Part shown: positions 23,121 through 54,338 of the stretch, piece by piece
Layout of the letters: each line of letters opens with the position of its first letter
Numbering within the stretch: position 1 is the stretch's first letter
From: Candidatus Gastranaerophilales bacterium
Lineage (GTDB): Bacteria > Cyanobacteriota > Vampirovibrionia > Gastranaerophilales > Gastranaerophilaceae
Direction of reading: 5' to 3'
Assembly (NCBI GenBank): GCA_944322935.1
Contig: CALUQO010000011.1
Location: 1 to 61,312 of the forward strand
DNA length: 61,312 bases
The notes under the pieces: generated by a model
Databases searched by the model: none
What the model was told of the DNA's origin: nothing
What the model saw: only the letters and a program-made list of their open reading frames with translations
Made by a program: the position numbers and the translations under genes

Positions 23121-23426
23121 TTATGCATTTACGTTTAATTGGAAATCGTTCTTAACGTTAGTATCCAATATTTTCTGCATGCTTTCCAATTCGGATGCTG
23201 CAGCTTTTTGTTGAGTTTCCAAGTTCTTTTGCTGCAATTCAAGGTAAGAATCCATTGCCTGTAATTGCTGAACTCTCGGATCATTTTCCCAGTCTACATC
23301 AGCCAATTGCATAGTTTGATAAGCAATTTGTTGTCTTTTGTTACTGATAGATGTAATGCTGAATTCAAGGTTGCTTTTGTACAACGTCAAAGACAATAAT
23401 CTTGTGTTAATAGCCCCTATAGTCAT
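23121..23426 (-). CDS. short member of the MGMA-type coiled-coil family
   Basis: A 101-residue, almost entirely helical protein starting MTIGAINTRLLSLTLYKSN. It matches the proteins at 49569, 50827 and 53299 in its ends: A-x-x-x-R-x-L-x-LT-x-x-K-x-x-x-E at the start, DPRVQQL in the middle, and an L-x-x-N-x-x-x-x-F pattern at the end (ILDTNVKNDF). It has no signal peptide. AAGGAGAAA lies before the ATG. It is monocistronic, with a ~190-base upstream region containing a 7-base hairpin (GATAAAC/GTTTATC, 23496-23516). Function unknown. Confidence 0.75.
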   Translation of the reverse strand: MTIGAINTRLLSLTLYKSNLEFSITSISNKRQQIAYQTMQLADVDWENDPRVQQLQAMDSYLELQQKNLETQQKAAASELESMQKILDTNVKNDFQLNVNA

Positions 23427-45483: not shown

Positions 45484-46296
45484 ATGTACGTTGCTATTTT
45501 TAACACGAGCTTTGGTCAAAATGTCACGCAAATCAACGAAGTTAACACTGTGACAACCAATGAATCTAACTTATTTAACCAAAAAATTGCTGAAATTGAC
45601 TCAGCCAGAAGCCAACTAACGGCTAAGCATATGACAGAAATGGCTACAGCAATGGATTTGGCTGACAAAATGATTAATAATAATGATATACTAAGCAAAT
45701 TAAACGCAAATGAGCTTACTTCCGTTGCGCTTAGTGCCTCGTCAAAGGCAAATTCTATTATAGGCTCATTAAAGTCCGCCATCGGGAGTTATGCTTCTGA
45801 AATCGCTGATATTATGAATAATCCGTTTTTAAGCGATTCGGAAAAGAAATCTAAAATAAAGCTTATCGAAGACAAAATTAAAGCAGCAGCACAGGAAGCC
45901 ACATCAAAGATTATGAATTTGTATTTAATATCCGAAATGATGGTAAGCCTCTCATCAACAGTAGCAGGCCTAAAAAACAGCGGATTTGACATATCAGAAT
46001 TCACATCAGTACTAAAACAGGCGCTGACAACAGTTAACACAAAACCTTCTGATTTATCCGAGGCATCTGACAAATCAGAAATGTATGACATTATTGATAA
46101 AAATGAAAAAATGTTTTTTGATAGCAACGCTACTGAAGCTATGAAATCACAAGCTGAAAAGGCGGACAAAAAGCTTAAAGAAAATGAATCACTGCTGAAA
46201 AGAGATGATTTAACAAAAGAAGAAAGAAAGCGCATACAATCCGAAAATGTTATTTATAAAACAGAAAAGAAGCTGTTTGAATCATTAACGAATTAA
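45484..46296 (+). CDS. helical protein of unknown function
   Basis: A 270-residue, mostly helical protein from the ATG at 45484, with AGGGGTGA upstream. It starts MYVAIFNTSFGQNVTQINEV and has long coiled-coil-like stretches (about 35-65, 100-150 and 215-265), rich in Lys/Glu/Ser. No signal peptide or membrane segment. The helical, serine-rich nature recalls secreted filament or effector-type proteins, but no family is recognised. Confidence 0.65.
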   Translation: MYVAIFNTSFGQNVTQINEVNTVTTNESNLFNQKIAEIDSARSQLTAKHMTEMATAMDLADKMINNNDILSKLNANELTSVALSASSKANSIIGSLKSAIGSYASEIADIMNNPFLSDSEKKSKIKLIEDKIKAAAQEATSKIMNLYLISEMMVSLSSTVAGLKNSGFDISEFTSVLKQALTTVNTKPSDLSEASDKSEMYDIIDKNEKMFFDSNATEAMKSQAEKADKKLKENESLLKRDDLTKEERKRIQSENVIYKTEKKLFESLTN

Positions 46297-48299: not shown

Positions 48300-49328
48300 A
48301 TGGCTCACGAATTAAAAGTTTACATGGATGCTGACATTGATAAAAGCAAAATCCTGAATAAAAAAGTTGCCGTTATCGGCTACGGTTCACAGGGCTACGG
48401 CCAATCAACAAACCTGAAGGACAGCGGTGTTGATGTTGTAATCGGGGCAAGATTAGGCGGTGCATCAGCTAAAAAGGCTCAAGCCGAAGGTTTAAAGGTA
48501 ATGAGCATAGAAGATGCCGTTAAATGGGCTGATTTAATCCAAATTCTTATCCCTGACGAAGTTCAGGCTAAAGTTTATGAAGAACAAATAAAACCAAATA
48601 TGCGTTCCGGTCAATATTTGATGTTTGCCCACGGTTTTAATATTCATTTTAAAAGAATTGTTCCTGATAAAGATATTAACGTGTTAATGGTTGCACCAAA
48701 AGGTCCCGGCCACACAGTAAGGAGTGAATATCAAGCCGGTAAAGGCGTTCCTTCTTTGATAGCAGTATATCAAGACCCTGCCGGAGATTCAAAAGAAGTT
48801 GCATTAGCTTATGCTTCCGCTATTGGTGCAGGTAGAGCAGGTATTTACGAAACTTCATTCAAAGAAGAAACGGAAACAGACCTCTTTGGCGAACAGGCTG
48901 TTCTTTGCGGTGGTTTATCAGCATTAATTACAACAGGTTTTGAAGTTCTTGTTGAAGCAGGTTATTCCCCTTACATGGCTTATTTTGAATGTCTGCACGA
49001 AATGAAGCTTATTGTTGACCTTGTTAACCAGGGCGGAATTTCCGATATGAGATACTCTATCTCTAACACTGCGGAATGGGGCGATTTAACTATTGGCCCT
49101 AGAATTATTACCCCTGCGGTTAAAGAAGAAATGAAAAAAGTTCTTAAAGAAATTCAAGACGGTAAATTTGCCAAAGAATGGATTGAAGAATATGAATCAG
49201 GCATGAAAAAATTCCGTGCACTGGAAAAGGAAGGGGAAGAACACTTAATTGAAAAAGTAGGAAAAGAACTTCGCTCTAAATTTGCCTGGAAAGATAACGA
49301 TAAAATTATTAACAGAGATAAAAACTAA
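48300..49328 (+). CDS. ilvC: ketol-acid reductoisomerase
   Basis: A 342-residue class I KARI. The Rossmann start is [20 protein letters not shown]; most homologues have GSQGHA here, so GYGQ is a variation. The catalytic part has [39 protein letters not shown] and [12 protein letters not shown]. It acts in valine, leucine and isoleucine synthesis, and its product path also feeds 2-oxoisovalerate to panB. AAAGGAG precedes the ATG. Alone, with its own terminator. Confidence 0.96.
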
Positions 49329-49349: not shown

Positions 49350-49377
49350 AAGACCGGAATTAATAAATTCCGGTCTT
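49350..49377 (+). terminator. intrinsic terminator after ilvC
   Basis: A 12-base stem AAGACCGGAATT (49350-49361) and AATTCCGGTCTT (49366-49377) followed by TTTTTT. Confidence 0.92.
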
Positions 49378-49568
49378 TTTTTGTGAAATTTGACTTATAT
49401 TCAAAAATCATTAAAGCATATTTAATGCATAAATGGTTAGTTTTACTGAATTTTAGTCTAATTGTAAATTTTTTGTAACATTATAACTCAAATTACTAAA
49501 GTTTTAGCAAAGGTATGCCGATAAATATAACAGATATGCAAATTAAAAAAATGTAAGGAGTATTAGCA

Positions 49569-50588
49569 ATGGGAATGGCAGCATCACAAGCCAGATACCT
49601 CGGCTTAACAGCAAGAAAAACAAACGTTGAATATGAAGGTCAACAGGTGAACCAGGAAAGAACAGCACTGGCTAACCAGAGCGCAGGTTTATTTAACCAA
49701 ATGTTGTCACTCAATGTGCCAACTCCGCCTTCTGCTAATGATTATACAAAAACCGAGTATGTATTTACAGACAACTCGACAAGTCAAGAATATACAATCG
49801 ACAGCATTTACAGAAATCCTACACCCGATGAAGAAGGTAATTATTATTATACTATATCTACTTACAGATCCAGAACAGATGTTCTTTCTAACAGATCTGA
49901 AATTGTAAGCAGCGGTACAAGCTCAAACAGATTTACAATCGCAAGAGGCGAAAACGATACATATACTATCCAAATCGGACATAACACAGCTCACACACTT
50001 GTTGAGCCTCAAAATTACACAGCTTTAACATCAAGTTTTCAAGATGCTGATGAAAAAGCCGGTATTACAGACAGCACTATCACTGATGATACAACTTTCT
50101 TTAAATTTACCGACGGCGGTGTGGAATACTATATTCCGACATCTGACGATCTTCAAACACTTGATGATTTATTAAATTACAGCGGAACGCTTACAATGTA
50201 TTCTGCAGAAAGTATTGCAAAAACAGAATACAAAACGTACAACGATGCTGTTCTTGAACAGGCAGGCGACGGTACCGGAAGATATACATCCGTAACATTT
50301 ACAAATGAAAACGGAGATATCGTAACCTGCAGCTTGACACAGCAAACAACTCAGGATGATGAAGCTTATGATGCAGCTATGGAAACATATAATGCTGAAA
50401 AAGCTATTTACGATAAAACAATATCTGAAATAAATGCACAAACTGAAATCATCCAACAACAAGACAAAACTCTTGAATTGCACTTAGACCAGTTAGATAC
50501 TGAGCAACAGGCAATTCAAACAGAAATGGACGCAGTTAAAAAGGTAATTGATAAAAACATAGAAGAAACATTCAAAACATTTGCATAA
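49569..50588 (+). CDS. long member of the MGMA-type coiled-coil family (paralogue 1)
   Basis: A 339-residue protein with a helical start MGMAASQARYLGLTARKTNV, a polar beta-rich middle (about 60-255, rich in Thr, Asp and Tyr), and a long helical end (about 268-339) finishing KKVIDKNIEETFKTFA. The ends match the protein at 50827 almost residue for residue, while the middle differs. This is the plan of flagellin-like or secretion-filament proteins, where conserved helical ends pack and the middle is exposed; that is analogy only. No signal peptide. AAGGAG precedes the ATG. Confidence 0.8.
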   Translation: MGMAASQARYLGLTARKTNVEYEGQQVNQERTALANQSAGLFNQMLSLNVPTPPSANDYTKTEYVFTDNSTSQEYTIDSIYRNPTPDEEGNYYYTISTYRSRTDVLSNRSEIVSSGTSSNRFTIARGENDTYTIQIGHNTAHTLVEPQNYTALTSSFQDADEKAGITDSTITDDTTFFKFTDGGVEYYIPTSDDLQTLDDLLNYSGTLTMYSAESIAKTEYKTYNDAVLEQAGDGTGRYTSVTFTNENGDIVTCSLTQQTTQDDEAYDAAMETYNAEKAIYDKTISEINAQTEIIQQQDKTLELHLDQLDTEQQAIQTEMDAVKKVIDKNIEETFKTFA

Positions 50589-50593
50589 TACTC

Positions 50594-50644
50594 CAATTTT
50601 CAACCGGCTTTTTAATAGTCTGCTTGGAAAATTGAAAAGCCGGT
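50594..50644 (+). repeat. interleaved inverted repeats after paralogue 1
   Basis: Arms CAATTTTC (50594-50601) with GAAAATTG (50627-50634), and ACCGGCTTTT (50603-50612) with AAAAGCCGGT (50635-50644). The two pairs interleave, so only one can form easily at a time. A modest T-rich stretch follows. It may work as a weak terminator of paralogue 1. Confidence 0.5.
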
Positions 50645-50826
50645 ATTTATTTAAAATTGTGGGTACATCAAACAGAGGATTTTTCTTTTAAGAGGCTTTA
50701 AAAATTGTTATATAAACATTTATAATTAAGGTAATAAAACTTAATATAAACTGCCTTAAATATGACAATTCAAGAAAGATAATTAAATTTAAATGGTTAG
50801 TAAGTTAAGAATGGAGACACGACGAT

Positions 50827-51804
50827 ATGGGCATGGCAGCATCACAGGCAAGATACTTAGGTATTACGGCAAGAAAAATTAACGTTGAGTATGAAGGACA
50901 ACAGGTTAACCAGCAAAGGACTGCTTTGGCAAATGAAAGTGCAGGGCTTTTCCGCAGGTTATTGTCTTTAAATACACCGACACCGCCAACGCAATCAGAT
51001 TATTATACAGATGTATATCAGTACAGTGACGCAGCAGCATCTGACGGTAAAGTTACTGTTACATCTATAACACCAAATGAAGGAACAGACCCGCAAACCT
51101 ATACGGTTATTACAAAGTACAATGCAGATGTTCCGCAGTATAACGTTTCAAGTAATCAGTCAGTTTATGTAAACGCTACATCAAGCGGAAATAAAATATA
51201 CATGAGCAACGGTAATAATTATGATTTATCTAACAGTATTACCGATTTGCCCCAATATATGCTTGATGAATTTAACCAAAACCCGAATTTGACATATCAA
51301 AATGAAACAACAGACCAATATTACATGTTCACAAATTCATCTAACGGTTCGACTTATTACATTAACGCAACAAAAACCGGCTTTGACCCGACAACTGCAG
51401 GAAGCCAAACTGTAGATTTACTTAGCGTAATGACAGTACAACAGGAGCAAACAAATACTATTAATAATGCAACAGTCGGCACTTCATCTTCAGGTTTGTA
51501 CAATTCTATAAGCTGGACTGACGATCAGGGTTATCAATACAACTATGACCTTTCTGTTGCACAAGAGTATGATGAACAGGGCTATAACGATGCAATGGAT
51601 CAATATAACGTTGACAAAGCAAATTACGAAAAAGAAGTTGCCGATATCAACGCAAAAACCGAAGAACTGCAAGAAACAGACCGAACTCTTGAATTAAAAC
51701 TAAAACAATTGGATACAGAGCAGGAAGCTCTTCAAACAGAGTTAGATTCTGTTAAGAAAGTTATTGATAAAAACGTAGAAAACGTATTTAAAACATTTCA
51801 ATAA
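50827..51804 (+). CDS. long member of the MGMA-type coiled-coil family (paralogue 2)
   Basis: A 325-residue protein. Start MGMAASQARYLGITARKINV and end KKVIDKNVENVFKTFQ nearly repeat paralogue 1; YEGQQVNQ and LALAN-type residues follow in both. The middle (about 60-255) is Asn/Thr/Tyr/Ser-rich and differs strongly from paralogue 1 in sequence, but both have a similar length. Starts at the ATG at 50827, with GGAG 10 bases upstream. It is 46 bases before the Gly-rich gene, so probably one transcript. Confidence 0.8.
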   Translation: MGMAASQARYLGITARKINVEYEGQQVNQQRTALANESAGLFRRLLSLNTPTPPTQSDYYTDVYQYSDAAASDGKVTVTSITPNEGTDPQTYTVITKYNADVPQYNVSSNQSVYVNATSSGNKIYMSNGNNYDLSNSITDLPQYMLDEFNQNPNLTYQNETTDQYYMFTNSSNGSTYYINATKTGFDPTTAGSQTVDLLSVMTVQQEQTNTINNATVGTSSSGLYNSISWTDDQGYQYNYDLSVAQEYDEQGYNDAMDQYNVDKANYEKEVADINAKTEELQETDRTLELKLKQLDTEQEALQTELDSVKKVIDKNVENVFKTFQ

Positions 51805-51850
51805 TTAGGTAAATAGATTATTAAACAGTTAGAATACATGAGGGCACATT

Positions 51851-52678
51851 ATGTCTTACAAAAATGACGGATATCTTGTAATAGCAAATAAATTTGGTAA
51901 AGCAAGTTCTGATGCAAAAGCCGAATTATTTGAAACTTATGATAGATTAAGAGATCTTACGGTAAGCGGTTCATCACTTGATGGCGGCGGCTTTGGTACA
52001 GCCGGCAGTTTTCTGTGGCAAATAGCAAGATTAATTTCACCCAGTGCCTTCATGCCGATTATGGGCGGAAATACAACAATGAATATTCCCGGTACTTCAT
52101 ACTGGTCGCCGATAAGCGGTGGTAATTCAATTTTGGACAGCGGTAGCGCTGCATTTGGTATTACCGATTTGGGTAATTACCCCGGATTTCCAAGCGGGGC
52201 TGCACCGATTGCCTGGGGCTTTGGTATGGATACAAGCTACAGTGACGGTACAATCACCGGCGGTGCTTCAAGTTTGTACTCTGCAAGCAGCATAGGCGGT
52301 TCAGTCGGACTTAATGCTGCTGCCTACGGTGCTGGTGTTGCCTCAGGCTTCGGCGTACCGGGTACTACGTGGGTCTTGCCTGCTGCAGGTATCGTATCCG
52401 GGTTCGCCGGTGTTGTTCAAGCAATGGCGCCCTATATGGGCAGCTTTGGGCTTGGTGCAACGGTTTTGGGTAACCTGCTTCAAGGTACTTCCTCTGCCGG
52501 TCTGGCTGCGTATCAAAATATTTCTGGCAACATCCTTTCTAACGCAGATACAATACTTTCTAACAAAGTAAGAAATATTGAAACAGTTGTAAAAATGCTC
52601 GACACTCAGGGGGATATAGTTAAGAAAATGCTAAAAGATTCTATTGAGGGCGACAGCAAACAAGTTCAAAATATGTAG
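51851..52678 (+). CDS. Gly/Ala/Ser-rich hydrophobic protein, unknown
   Basis: A 275-residue protein. A helical start (1-37) is followed by a Gly/Ser/Ala-rich middle (about 40-235) with repeated aromatic residues (YWSPISGG, NYPGFPSG) and hydrophobic stretches around 165-215, then a helical end (about 232-275). The composition suggests a membrane-inserting or surface-assembling protein. No signal peptide. It lies between members of the coiled-coil family on the same strand. Not recognised. Confidence 0.7.
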   Translation: MSYKNDGYLVIANKFGKASSDAKAELFETYDRLRDLTVSGSSLDGGGFGTAGSFLWQIARLISPSAFMPIMGGNTTMNIPGTSYWSPISGGNSILDSGSAAFGITDLGNYPGFPSGAAPIAWGFGMDTSYSDGTITGGASSLYSASSIGGSVGLNAAAYGAGVASGFGVPGTTWVLPAAGIVSGFAGVVQAMAPYMGSFGLGATVLGNLLQGTSSAGLAAYQNISGNILSNADTILSNKVRNIETVVKMLDTQGDIVKKMLKDSIEGDSKQVQNM

Positions 52679-52694
52679 TAATATAAAGGGTTTT

Positions 52695-52895
52695 ATGAAA
52701 AAAGCAAGATACAAATCAGTTGTTAATAATAAGCTGGTCTCTTTTGGTATGCTTAAACAAATTGTAACGTTTTATTACAATATTCTGTTTAACTATTCAA
52801 AAATACTAAAGAAAAGTGAAAATGTGTCGATAAATACTTTAGAGCACAAAAACTGTCTGTCTTTATTGAAGGCATCAGTTTACAGTAATTATTAA
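52695..52895 (+). CDS. small basic hypothetical protein
   Basis: A 66-residue protein from the ATG at 52695 (MKKARYKSVVNNKLVSFG), 16 bases after the Gly-rich gene; AAAGGG lies upstream. Helical, with hydrophobic and basic residues (QIVTFYYNILFNYSKILKK), perhaps membrane-touching. No family recognised. Probably co-transcribed with its neighbours. Confidence 0.55.
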   Translation: MKKARYKSVVNNKLVSFGMLKQIVTFYYNILFNYSKILKKSENVSINTLEHKNCLSLLKASVYSNY

Positions 52896-52999
52896 CTTTA
52901 TATATTAAGAAATATTAAAATATTTTGAATATAGAGCAATAATATACTGTGTTCTGTTTTTATTGTTATGTAGGTGTCCAAGTGGACAAGGAGTAAACA

Positions 53000-53272
53000 T
53001 TGTTTCAAGCAGCTTTAACAACAAACTTGCAAAAAATAATTAACTTCTTTGGTTACTTGATGGCTTATCTGAGAAAGCATAATCCGCTGCAGATATTTTT
53101 GGCCGAAATTACTACAATGCTCAAAGAGTATCTTACAATGAACAGAAAGCGTAAAATGGCCAAATATCGTTTGAATTACCAGATGTACAAACTGAACCAG
53201 ATGGAGCAGCTGATTGCAGAAAACAACGAACACGTATTTCTCAGAGGCAACAGAATCAACCTGCAACGATAA
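53000..53272 (+). CDS. small basic helical hypothetical protein
   Basis: A 90-residue protein from a TTG at 53000 with AAGGAG upstream at good spacing; the first internal ATG at 53057 lacks one. It is helical and basic (MNRKRKMAKYRLNYQMYKLN) with an N-terminal hydrophobic stretch (about 12-35). It ends 26 bases before the short coiled-coil family member. No family recognised. Confidence 0.6.
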   Translation: MFQAALTTNLQKIINFFGYLMAYLRKHNPLQIFLAEITTMLKEYLTMNRKRKMAKYRLNYQMYKLNQMEQLIAENNEHVFLRGNRINLQR

Positions 53273-53298
53273 TTAACTAGACAAGGGTGGGTCCTGTT

Positions 53299-53622
53299 AT
53301 GGGCATGGCAACAGCACAATTGAGATTAACTTATCTGAATGCTTACAGACTTGATCTGGAGTATAAGATACAGTTGATTTCCGAAGCAAAAATGAATCTG
53401 GCAAAAACCTGTACCGATCTTCTTAATGTCGGTACCGATTTAGATGCCGACGACCCTCTGGTAAAAAAACTGGAAGCACGTAAAGAGCGTTTGAATGTAA
53501 TGGAAAAACAACTCGATATGAAGATGGAACATTACAAACAGACCTTGCAAATGATAGAAACAGAATACTCATCTTGTGAACAAATGCTCCAAAAAAATAT
53601 CGAGCGGTCTTTCAAATACTAA
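53299..53622 (+). CDS. short member of the MGMA-type coiled-coil family
   Basis: A 107-residue protein. I chose the ATG at 53299 so it starts MGMATAQLRLTYLNAYRLD, as its relatives do; a GTG 12 bases earlier is in frame. It is a helical hairpin with DADDPLVKKLEARKE at about 49-63 and an end LQKNIERSF like the KNI/KNV-x-x-x-F end of the others. It lacks the large middle of paralogues 1 and 2, and is closest in size to the protein at 23121. Confidence 0.75.
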   Translation: MGMATAQLRLTYLNAYRLDLEYKIQLISEAKMNLAKTCTDLLNVGTDLDADDPLVKKLEARKERLNVMEKQLDMKMEHYKQTLQMIETEYSSCEQMLQKNIERSFKY

Positions 53623-53630
53623 TGCAATAA

Positions 53631-54338
53631 CTAATCATCTGTTTTAGAAATTTTTGCGTTAGACATAGCAAGTTTTATAAAATTTTTGGCTTCATTTATC
53701 GGCACTGCAAACCCAATGCCGATATTTGATATATTGTTATCAGGATTATATATGGATTGACTTATACCGATAACTTCTCCGTGAATGTTCATTATAGGGC
53801 CGCCGGAATTCCCGGGGTTTATCGCCGCATCAGTCTGGATTTTATTTTTTTTATAATCAATACGCGAAACAATACCGGTTGTTAATGTATTGCTAAAACC
53901 GAACGGATTGCCGATTGCGAGAACCCTTTGACCAACTTTTACCTTTTCTGAATCACCAAGTGATATAACAGGTAAGCTCTTTTTAGCATCAATTTTTATA
54001 ATCGCCAGATCATTATCTTTGCCCATTACAGAAACTATGTCACCTTTAAAAACCTCACCTGTTGAAATTGTAACCTGCACAGAGGGTGCACCGGTTATAA
54101 CATGCGAGCTTGTTAAAATATAACCTCTTGAATCTATAACACATCCTGTGCCTGTTGAAACTCCGTCGGGCAAATCAGCCTCAATCAAAACAATTGATGG
54201 TGATGTCTTTTCATAAATGGAAGTAACTGCAGAATCTTCGTCATACCTGTTTGAATCAAGAATTCCGCAAAATGCAGCATTAGGTAAAAATCCGCTCAAA
54301 ACAGACACAATACACATAGTAATAATAAATTTACGCAT
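53631..54338 (-). CDS. HtrA/trypsin-like serine protease without PDZ domain
   Basis: A 235-residue protein with a signal peptide (1-24). The triad is seen in SSHVI (His), DNDLAII (Asp) and GNSGGP (Ser); GIVSRIDY and IGFAVPI are typical of DegP-like enzymes. The usual C-terminal PDZ domain is absent and the length ends right after the protease fold. It should act outside the cytoplasm in quality control. GAGGAG precedes the ATG. It converges on the coiled-coil family gene, eight bases apart. Confidence 0.9.
   Translation of the reverse strand: MRKFIITMCIVSVLSGFLPNAAFCGILDSNRYDEDSAVTSIYEKTSPSIVLIEADLPDGVSTGTGCVIDSRGYILTSSHVITGAPSVQVTISTGEVFKGDIVSVMGKDNDLAIIKIDAKKSLPVISLGDSEKVKVGQRVLAIGNPFGFSNTLTTGIVSRIDYKKNKIQTDAAINPGNSGGPIMNIHGEVIGISQSIYNPDNNISNIGIGFAVPINEAKNFIKLAMSNAKISKTDD

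What the first reader, a model, noticed from the sequence alone, without database searches (positions are those of the whole stretch)
49569..53622. A family of proteins with conserved helical ends around a variable middle, clustered with unknown genes
Four proteins (23121, 49569, 50827, 53299) share a start of the MGMAASQARYLxLTAR type and an end of the K-N-I/V-x-x-x-F type. Two are short coiled-coils (~100 residues); two carry ~200 extra residues between the ends, and in those two the ends are nearly identical while the middles differ. The three at 49.6-53.6 kb run on one strand with a Gly-rich hydrophobic protein and two small basic proteins. Conserved ends with an exposed variable middle are the plan of flagellin, hook and secretion-filament proteins, but no flagellar or secretion gene is here. 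The simplest inference is a self-assembling or exported family with short and long forms.
Basis: partly seen in the sequence, partly recalled or inferred. Interest (0 to 1): 0.78.

Follow-up and report, generated by a model that had tools for sequence, protein, structure and literature searches.

The report
Filament-like proteins of second secretion machine
A gut bacterium's unknown genes belong to a large family shaped like flagellum-filament proteins; they appear to serve a second protein-export machine, related to the flagellum but separate from it, that earlier papers read as an incomplete flagellum.

Summary
In detail: 49569, 50827, 53299 and 23121 are one family (here "AX"), with at least three more copies in this genome; decoys score far worse. 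No known sequence family matches. AX is in all 117 Gastranaerophilales genomes sampled. The AF2 model of a long form (pLDDT 86.6) is helix, beta domain, helix; its 21 best structural neighbours are flagellar axial proteins (Z up to 9.2). The window's gene order (AX, Gly-rich, 90-aa, short AX) recurs across the order and in several genera lies within 15 kb of a second flagellar-type secretion operon (FliE, FliF, FliH, FlhA), distinct from the true flagellum. Genomes without flagellin or P-ring keep that operon and AX. Long AX genes and the 90-aa/short-AX unit often carry sigma-28 promoters, like flagellins; core genes do not. All 162 AX-bearing genomes in the class have an FlhA-type gene; none of 54 without one has AX. 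Most likely AX are axial or secreted subunits of this second system. Export, polymerisation, outer-membrane passage and purpose are not shown. Earlier papers treated these genes as an incomplete flagellum.

The parts
49497..49524 (+). Sigma-28 (FliA/SigD)-type promoter TAAAGTTT-N12-GCCGATAA, perfect match, ending 45 bp before the first AX gene
   Evidence: 0 mismatches; Markov expectation for <=1 mismatch in the whole window 0.05; the same element lies at -57 to about -95 of many AX genes in relatives. Seen by eye, then tested.
49569..50588 (+). AX-339, long axial-type protein (conserved helical ends, variable middle)
   Evidence: ends profile 6.1e-62
50827..51804 (+). AX-325, long axial-type protein; AF2: helix 2-47, beta domain 60-248, helix 250-324, pLDDT 86.6; nearest solved folds are flagellar axial proteins
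   Evidence: no strong sigma-28 site upstream
51851..52678 (+). Gly-rich hydrophobic protein (MSYKND family), usual partner directly after a long AX gene; role unknown (cap, plug or pore-like component possible)
   Evidence: follows AX in most cassettes, 54-95% identity; AF2 model uninformative (pLDDT 40.7)
53000..53272 (+). 90-aa basic protein (p90), first gene of the p90/short-AX unit; sigma-28-type promoter in many relatives (in the window only a 4-mismatch site)
   Evidence: 39 of 70 p90 upstreams match with <=3 mismatches
53299..53622 (+). Short AX (107 aa from ATG; the ORF could start at GTG 53287), helical ends without a middle domain
   Evidence: 9.5e-11; profile-profile E 1.4e-7 with long AX
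23121..23426 (-). Solitary short AX (101 aa), away from the cassette
   Evidence: 5.4e-12
53631..54338 (-). Trypsin-like (HtrA/DegP-like) peptidase next to the cassette; association suggested only
   Evidence: PF13365 1.3e-30; next to the cassette in most of the closest loci; a homologue lies near FlgE/FliK/FliJ-like genes in a relative (L157)
52644..52895 (+). 83-aa basic ORF overlapping the Gly-rich gene; probably not a gene
   Evidence: absent from many otherwise identical cassettes

Best explanation
The window holds the axial-protein cassette of a second, non-motility type III secretion machine of Gastranaerophilales. SHOWN by sequence: the genome has genes for a flagellum and, separately, for a second flagellar-type basal apparatus with its own FlhA, FliI, FliH, FliF, a 339-aa protein in the FliG position, FliM/N-like, FliO, FliP, FliQ, FliR, FliE, FlgB, FlgC, two FlgF/G-like proteins and a lytic transglycosylase. 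A non-flagellate relative has, in addition, hook-like, FliK-like and YscO/FliJ-like genes. AX genes were found only in genomes with an FlhA-type gene, persist where flagellin and P-ring are gone, are linked to this operon in several genera, and often have sigma-28 promoters where the core genes do not. INFERRED: as in flagella, core and rod are built first, then sigma-28 is freed to transcribe late genes; AX proteins are exported unfolded and assemble through their N- and C-terminal helices (D0/D1-like) onto the rod or hook, with the variable middle domain facing out. Cassette long AX plus the Gly-rich protein, which mostly lack sigma-28 sites in non-flagellates, would be earlier (hook, junction or cap-like); 49569-type and orphan long AX, and p90/short AX, would be late filament or secreted subunits. 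The 380-780-aa orphans give each species a set of different surface middles, suited to contact with host or neighbours. How the structure crosses the outer membrane is unknown, since no P-ring gene was found where the system occurs alone.
For: Fold: the 21 best structural rows are all flagellar axial proteins: flagellin, FlgL, rod, hook, FliD; best Foldseek row is flagellin, E 1.7e-3. Linkage: same gene order within 15 kb of the second FlhA operon in 12 of 40 loci taken for diversity, plus L128-L133, which were picked for linkage. Co-occurrence: 162/162 AX genomes have FHIPEP, 0/54 FHIPEP-free genomes have AX. 23 of 33 genomes lack flagellin but keep AX and the second FlhA. The second FlhA forms a separate group with 100/100 support and scores below both flagellar and injectisome cut-offs, while the flagellar copy of the same genome passes. 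Sigma-28 sites (<=3 mismatches): 65/163 long AX, 39/70 p90, 34/1796 other genes, 0/259 core genes; in non-flagellates alone 18/53, 13/17 and 7/547. FliA-type sigma factor in a non-flagellate.
Against: No experiment shows export or polymerisation. Profile-profile comparison with this order's flagellins finds no sequence relation. Z of 6-9 for long-helix models can reflect a shared arrangement only (note). Linkage to the operon is limited to some genera of one family and may descend from one ancestral arrangement; in the window's genus the cassette is on another contig. 24 genomes have FHIPEP without detected AX. The outer-membrane channel, FliG function and motor genes of the second system are unresolved. 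Cassette long AX of non-flagellates mostly lack the sigma-28 site (1 of 21).
Confidence: 0.72

Rival explanations
1. AX proteins are effectors or adhesins secreted through the second machine rather than subunits of a filament: the common ends are a secretion/chaperone frame and the middles are separate activities.
For: About 7-11 genes per genome, many solitary among housekeeping genes, with 380-780-aa forms whose middles differ; one middle carries GLUG motifs; sigma-28 late promoters would suit effectors too.
Against: Both ends are conserved as long helices that pair in the model, which an export signal alone does not need; short forms are ends only; structural neighbours are axial proteins; nine of ten long forms tested have no Pfam domain above cut-off.
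Confidence: 0.3
2. The second system is a decaying flagellum and AX are leftover or divergent flagellins/hook-associated proteins of the ordinary flagellum.
For: [quoted passage not shown] PMC3787301).
Against: Flagellate genomes carry both systems, with FlhA copies in separate 100/100 groups; the second one is the near-constant member of the order and its listed FlhA frames are nearly all intact; AX persists where flagellin is gone.
Confidence: 0.08
3. The second system is a real but unusual flagellum (rotating, or periplasmic) whose filament is made of AX.
For: Rod, hook-like and FliK-like genes and sigma-28 control resemble a flagellum; lack of a P-ring would fit a periplasmic filament.
Against: The FliG position is filled by a protein with only a weak match to FliG (hhalign probability 26%); Soo et al. 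infer non-motility of such members from gene content. Motor (MotA/B) genes were not searched in these genomes.
Confidence: 0.15
4. AX are cytoplasmic coiled-coil scaffold proteins with no link to secretion.
For: No strongly hydrophobic (signal- or membrane-like) stretch in any of 169 long forms; short forms look like generic coiled coils.
Against: Axial-type fold, sigma-28 control, operon linkage and FlhA co-occurrence; lack of a Sec signal is also expected of type III substrates.
Confidence: 0.05

Closest known systems
Flagellin FliC and hook-junction protein FlgL (PF00669 and relatives)
   Same: Helix, exposed variable beta domain, helix plan; conserved ends; sigma-28-type promoter; nearest solved folds (FlgL 5yti: Z 8.1, rmsd 2.0 over 117 residues)
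   Different: No detectable sequence relation; kept in genomes without flagellin; many paralogues with large middles; partnered by a Gly-rich protein and p90
Bacterial flagellar type III export/basal apparatus
   Same: FlhA, FliI, FliH, FliF, FliE, FlgB, FlgC, FlgF/G, FliOPQR, FliM/N-like; in a relative FliK-like and hook-like proteins
   Different: Separate FlhA group below the flagellar equivalog cut-off; no flagellin and no P-ring where it occurs alone; unrecognised protein in the FliG position
Injectisome (non-flagellar T3SS) with SctF needle and EspA-type filament
   Same: Would work like it if AX form a non-rotating surface tube; a single FliM/N-like (SctQ-like) ring protein
   Different: Has FlgB, FlgC and FliE, which the rule of PMC3459982 excludes; no secretin seen in the loci examined, but none was searched genome-wide
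Buchnera and Lysobacter flagellar gene sets kept without flagellar motility
   Same: Basal apparatus genes kept without flagella-driven motility
   Different: Here a separate second system with its own substrate family; Buchnera comparison is from general knowledge, Lysobacter from an abstract (PMC9927559)
Myxococcales secretin-less NF-T3SS (Abby and Rocha 2012, PMC3459982)
   Same: A system earlier called a relic but conserved across species; no outer-membrane channel known
   Different: That one lacks FlgB, FlgC and FliE; this one has them

Membership tests
Flagellin / hook-associated (axial) proteins | Sequence match to flagellin or other axial Pfam/NCBIfam models, or to this order's flagellins | tested here: not met
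   No such model hit at E<=1; profile-profile probability 0.4%
Flagellin / hook-associated (axial) proteins | Fold with paired N- and C-terminal helices around an exposed domain, matching solved axial proteins | tested here: met
   a predicted model, Z 6-9, so shared arrangement rather than proven homology
Flagellin / hook-associated (axial) proteins | Late (sigma-28) transcription | tested here: met
   by promoter pattern only, for a part of the family (65 of 163 long forms)
Flagellin / hook-associated (axial) proteins | Exported by a type III apparatus and polymerises | not testable with these tools
   Needs fractionation, microscopy or mutants
Flagellum (the second system) | Export gate, ATPase, MS-ring and rod genes | tested here: met
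   FlhB was not searched here, but flhB is in the list of genes shared by four genomes including MEL.A1
Flagellum (the second system) | Flagellin filament and P-ring | tested here: not met
   Flagellin absent in 23 of 33 genomes that keep the second system; FlgI in 9 of 30, flagellin-bearing genomes only
Flagellum (the second system) | Stator and FliG | tested here: inconclusive
   339-aa protein in FliG position, weak match; MotA/B not searched in non-flagellates
Non-flagellar T3SS (injectisome) | Lacks FlgB, FlgC, FliE (rule of PMC3459982) | tested here: not met
   FliE 4.9e-15, FlgC-type 7.2e-10 and 2.4e-5, FlgB-type 7.5e-4 (just under its cut-off)
Non-flagellar T3SS (injectisome) | Secretin SctC | not tested
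   No genome-wide secretin search was run; only a 122-aa protein with a weak T2SS-T3SS_pil_N match was seen

The most novel reading that the evidence does not exclude
A third kind of type III machine, neither motility flagellum nor injectisome, present throughout Gastranaerophilales: a flagellar-type rod apparatus that builds a non-flagellin, sigma-28-controlled filament from a large AX family with species-specific exposed domains, possibly used to touch host or neighbouring cells. The 'incomplete flagella' of this gut order would be this machine.
Probability: 0.5. Interest if true: 0.88.

Novelty: new variant of a known kind. Interest (0 to 1): 0.72.

Why it matters
It gives a candidate surface apparatus and substrates to an order of human and animal gut bacteria, known mostly from metagenomes, in which no second type III system was described in the papers found here. 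It recasts gene sets published as incomplete flagella as a conserved second machine, and offers an independent case of how a flagellar export system can take on new axial proteins, which bears on the flagellum-to-injectisome question.

Tried and rejected
Pfam, NCBIfam, PHROGs and PDB sequence searches of AX, Gly-rich and short forms gave nothing convincing; for the short-form profile the PDB hits (best 0.0023) look like unrelated helical proteins. AF2 of the Gly-rich protein failed. Profile comparison of AX with flagellins found nothing. Generic coiled-coil similarity was tested with reversed and shuffled decoys and rejected. A first FlhA tree left out the flagellar copies through a wrong score cut and was redone. 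Co-occurrence, linkage and promoter counts are not corrected for shared ancestry. The sigma-28 pattern was chosen after seeing the window site, then tested on other loci with scrambled patterns and other genes as controls. No paper linking Melainabacteria/Gastranaerophilales to a second T3SS was found in the held library.

Full report
1. The observation. The four ORFs are present. No library of known families recognises them. Own-genome search with 50827 found 49569 (E 1e-58), a 224-aa copy on C15, 23121 and weaker ones. An ends-only profile from 61 long forms separates seven family members (6e-62 to 2.6e-5) from 574 reversed decoys, best 0.075. The two window long forms are rows of that profile. 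Short and long profiles match at 1.4e-7, shuffled best 0.0098. Iterated profiles started from the long form, from 53299 and from 23121 end on sets of the same size, 244 ORFs. Ends are conserved and middles are not: 85/27/62% identity between the two window copies, and mean majority fractions 0.85/0.39/0.77 across 61 sequences.

2. Distribution. The long-form profile hits 117 of 117 sampled genomes of the order. In 240 genomes of the class AX is in 162, including families outside the order; all 162 have an FHIPEP (FlhA-type) gene, and the 54 genomes without FHIPEP have no AX; 24 have FHIPEP only. These genomes are related, so the counts are not independent tests. A looser profile finds roughly 7-11 genes per genome in five genomes, counted by me from the match list, with forms of about 100 to 780 aa.

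3. Gene order. The cassette long AX, Gly-rich (MSYKND), p90, short AX recurs across the order, whole or in part, in most of the 77 loci fetched. In G001 and G067 it lies upstream of FliE, YscJ/FliF, an unknown protein of about 338 aa, FliH and FHIPEP. Among 40 FHIPEP loci chosen for diversity and not for linkage, 12 had the cassette within 15 kb; random placement in a 2-Mb genome would give about 0.4 (my estimate, ignoring ancestry). In the window's genus the core operon is on C28 (L126) and the cassette on C11.

4. Two systems. The own genome has two full FHIPEP genes: C31 (passes the flagellar FlhA cut-off, 846.5 over 772.1) and C28 (696.3, below flagellar and SctV cut-offs). The two classes form separate 100/100 groups. 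Flagellar genes proper lie on C6, C8, C17, C18 and other contigs: flagellin, FlgL, FlgK, hook, P-ring and MotA/B-like genes, some named by inspection only. System 2 in this genome: FliI, FlhA, FliH, the 339-aa protein and FliF on C28; two FlgF/G-like, FlgB, FlgC, SLT transglycosylase and FliE on C52; FliM/N-like, FliO, FliP, FliQ, a 122-aa protein with a weak pilus N-terminal domain, and FliR on C4. A non-flagellate relative has hook-like, FliK-like (below cut-off) and YscO-like genes in one place (L157). Flagellin is in 10 of 33 genomes, those with the high-scoring FlhA; FlgI in 9 of 30, again only in genomes with flagellin. G085 has flagellin but no FlgI was found.

5. Structure. AF2 of 50827 with 61 sequences: pLDDT 86.6, pTM 0.53, helix 2-47, beta domain 60-248, helix 250-324. 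Of the 32 best rows of the structural comparison, all but two are flagellar axial proteins or caps, Z 9.2 to 5.5. The tool's own note warns that such Z values can mean a common arrangement; what counts here is that one functional class fills the top of a list drawn from 350,542 chains. Sequence comparison with flagellins gives nothing, so common descent is not shown.

6. Promoters. Upstream of 49569 is TAAAGTTT-N12-GCCGATAA (49497-49524). With at most 3 mismatches this pattern occurs before 65 of 163 long AX genes (62 of them at -50 to -95), 39 of 70 p90 genes, 34 of 1796 other genes and none of 259 core genes (FliE, FliF, p338, FliH, FlhA, FliI, a few of them flagellar copies); scrambled patterns show no excess at <=3 mismatches. 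Top hits among other genes include two flagellins and FlgF/G-like genes of system 2. Limited to non-flagellate loci: 18/53 long AX, 13/17 p90, 7/547 other genes. There, long AX in loci with the Gly-rich gene mostly lack the site (1 of 21) while the other long AX have it more often (17 of 32). A FliA/WhiG-family sigma factor is present in non-flagellate G001 (TIGR02479 241.6 over 189.6).

7. Reading. I conclude that AX are axial or secreted substrates of system 2 (0.72). Polymerisation into a filament is the likelier of the two main readings but is inferred from shape. The order of assembly (cassette AX and Gly-rich early; 49569-type, orphan AX, p90/short AX late) is inferred from promoters. 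The function of the middles is open; one long form has GLUG motifs, the other nine tested have no domain above cut-off. Passage through the outer membrane is unexplained.

8. What was known. Di Rienzi et al. 2013 list 13 flagellum-related genes shared by four genomes, two of them flhA, and read the lack of filament, cap, junction, L and P rings in MEL.A1 as possible ongoing reduction. Soo et al. [quoted passage not shown] Those absences resemble what I find for genomes with system 2 only. Under the rule of Abby and Rocha 2012 system 2 is not an NF-T3SS because it has FlgB, FlgC and FliE. I found no paper in the held library describing a second type III system or the AX family here; subscription literature was not searchable.

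Noticed in passing
window 45484-46296 (+): 270-aa protein (MYVAIFNTSFGQ...) of no known family; homologues in relatives (L050, L052) have a one-mismatch sigma-28 site at -63, while the window copy has only a degenerate one. Possible further late substrate.
   Followed up: partly
L126:15296-16552 (G000 C28): HD-type c-di-GMP phosphodiesterase-like regulator with a perfect sigma-28-type site, close to the system-2 core operon.
   Followed up: no
L153:7731-8099 (G000 C4); same place in L151: Small 122-aa exported-looking protein with a weak T2SS-T3SS_pil_N match between FliQ and FliR; could be an envelope ring part.
   Followed up: no
L152:5895-6575 (G000 C52): Lytic transglycosylase between FlgC and FliE, suited to opening peptidoglycan for the rod.
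   Followed up: no
G018 C3:293871, G060 C2:259203: Another 165-175-aa unknown protein (MALSVSQNLNLGID...KRAAEKNSQY) just after a sigma-28-type site in two non-flagellate genomes.
   Followed up: no
G086:C28:23102-23512; G007:C2:401045-401440: Flagellin N-terminal domain in open frames of 3249 and 1557 aa: possible giant flagellins.
   Followed up: no
window 49350-49377: Terminator-like hairpin between the ilvC-like gene (48300-49328) and the first AX gene, which would mark the cassette as its own unit.
   Followed up: no
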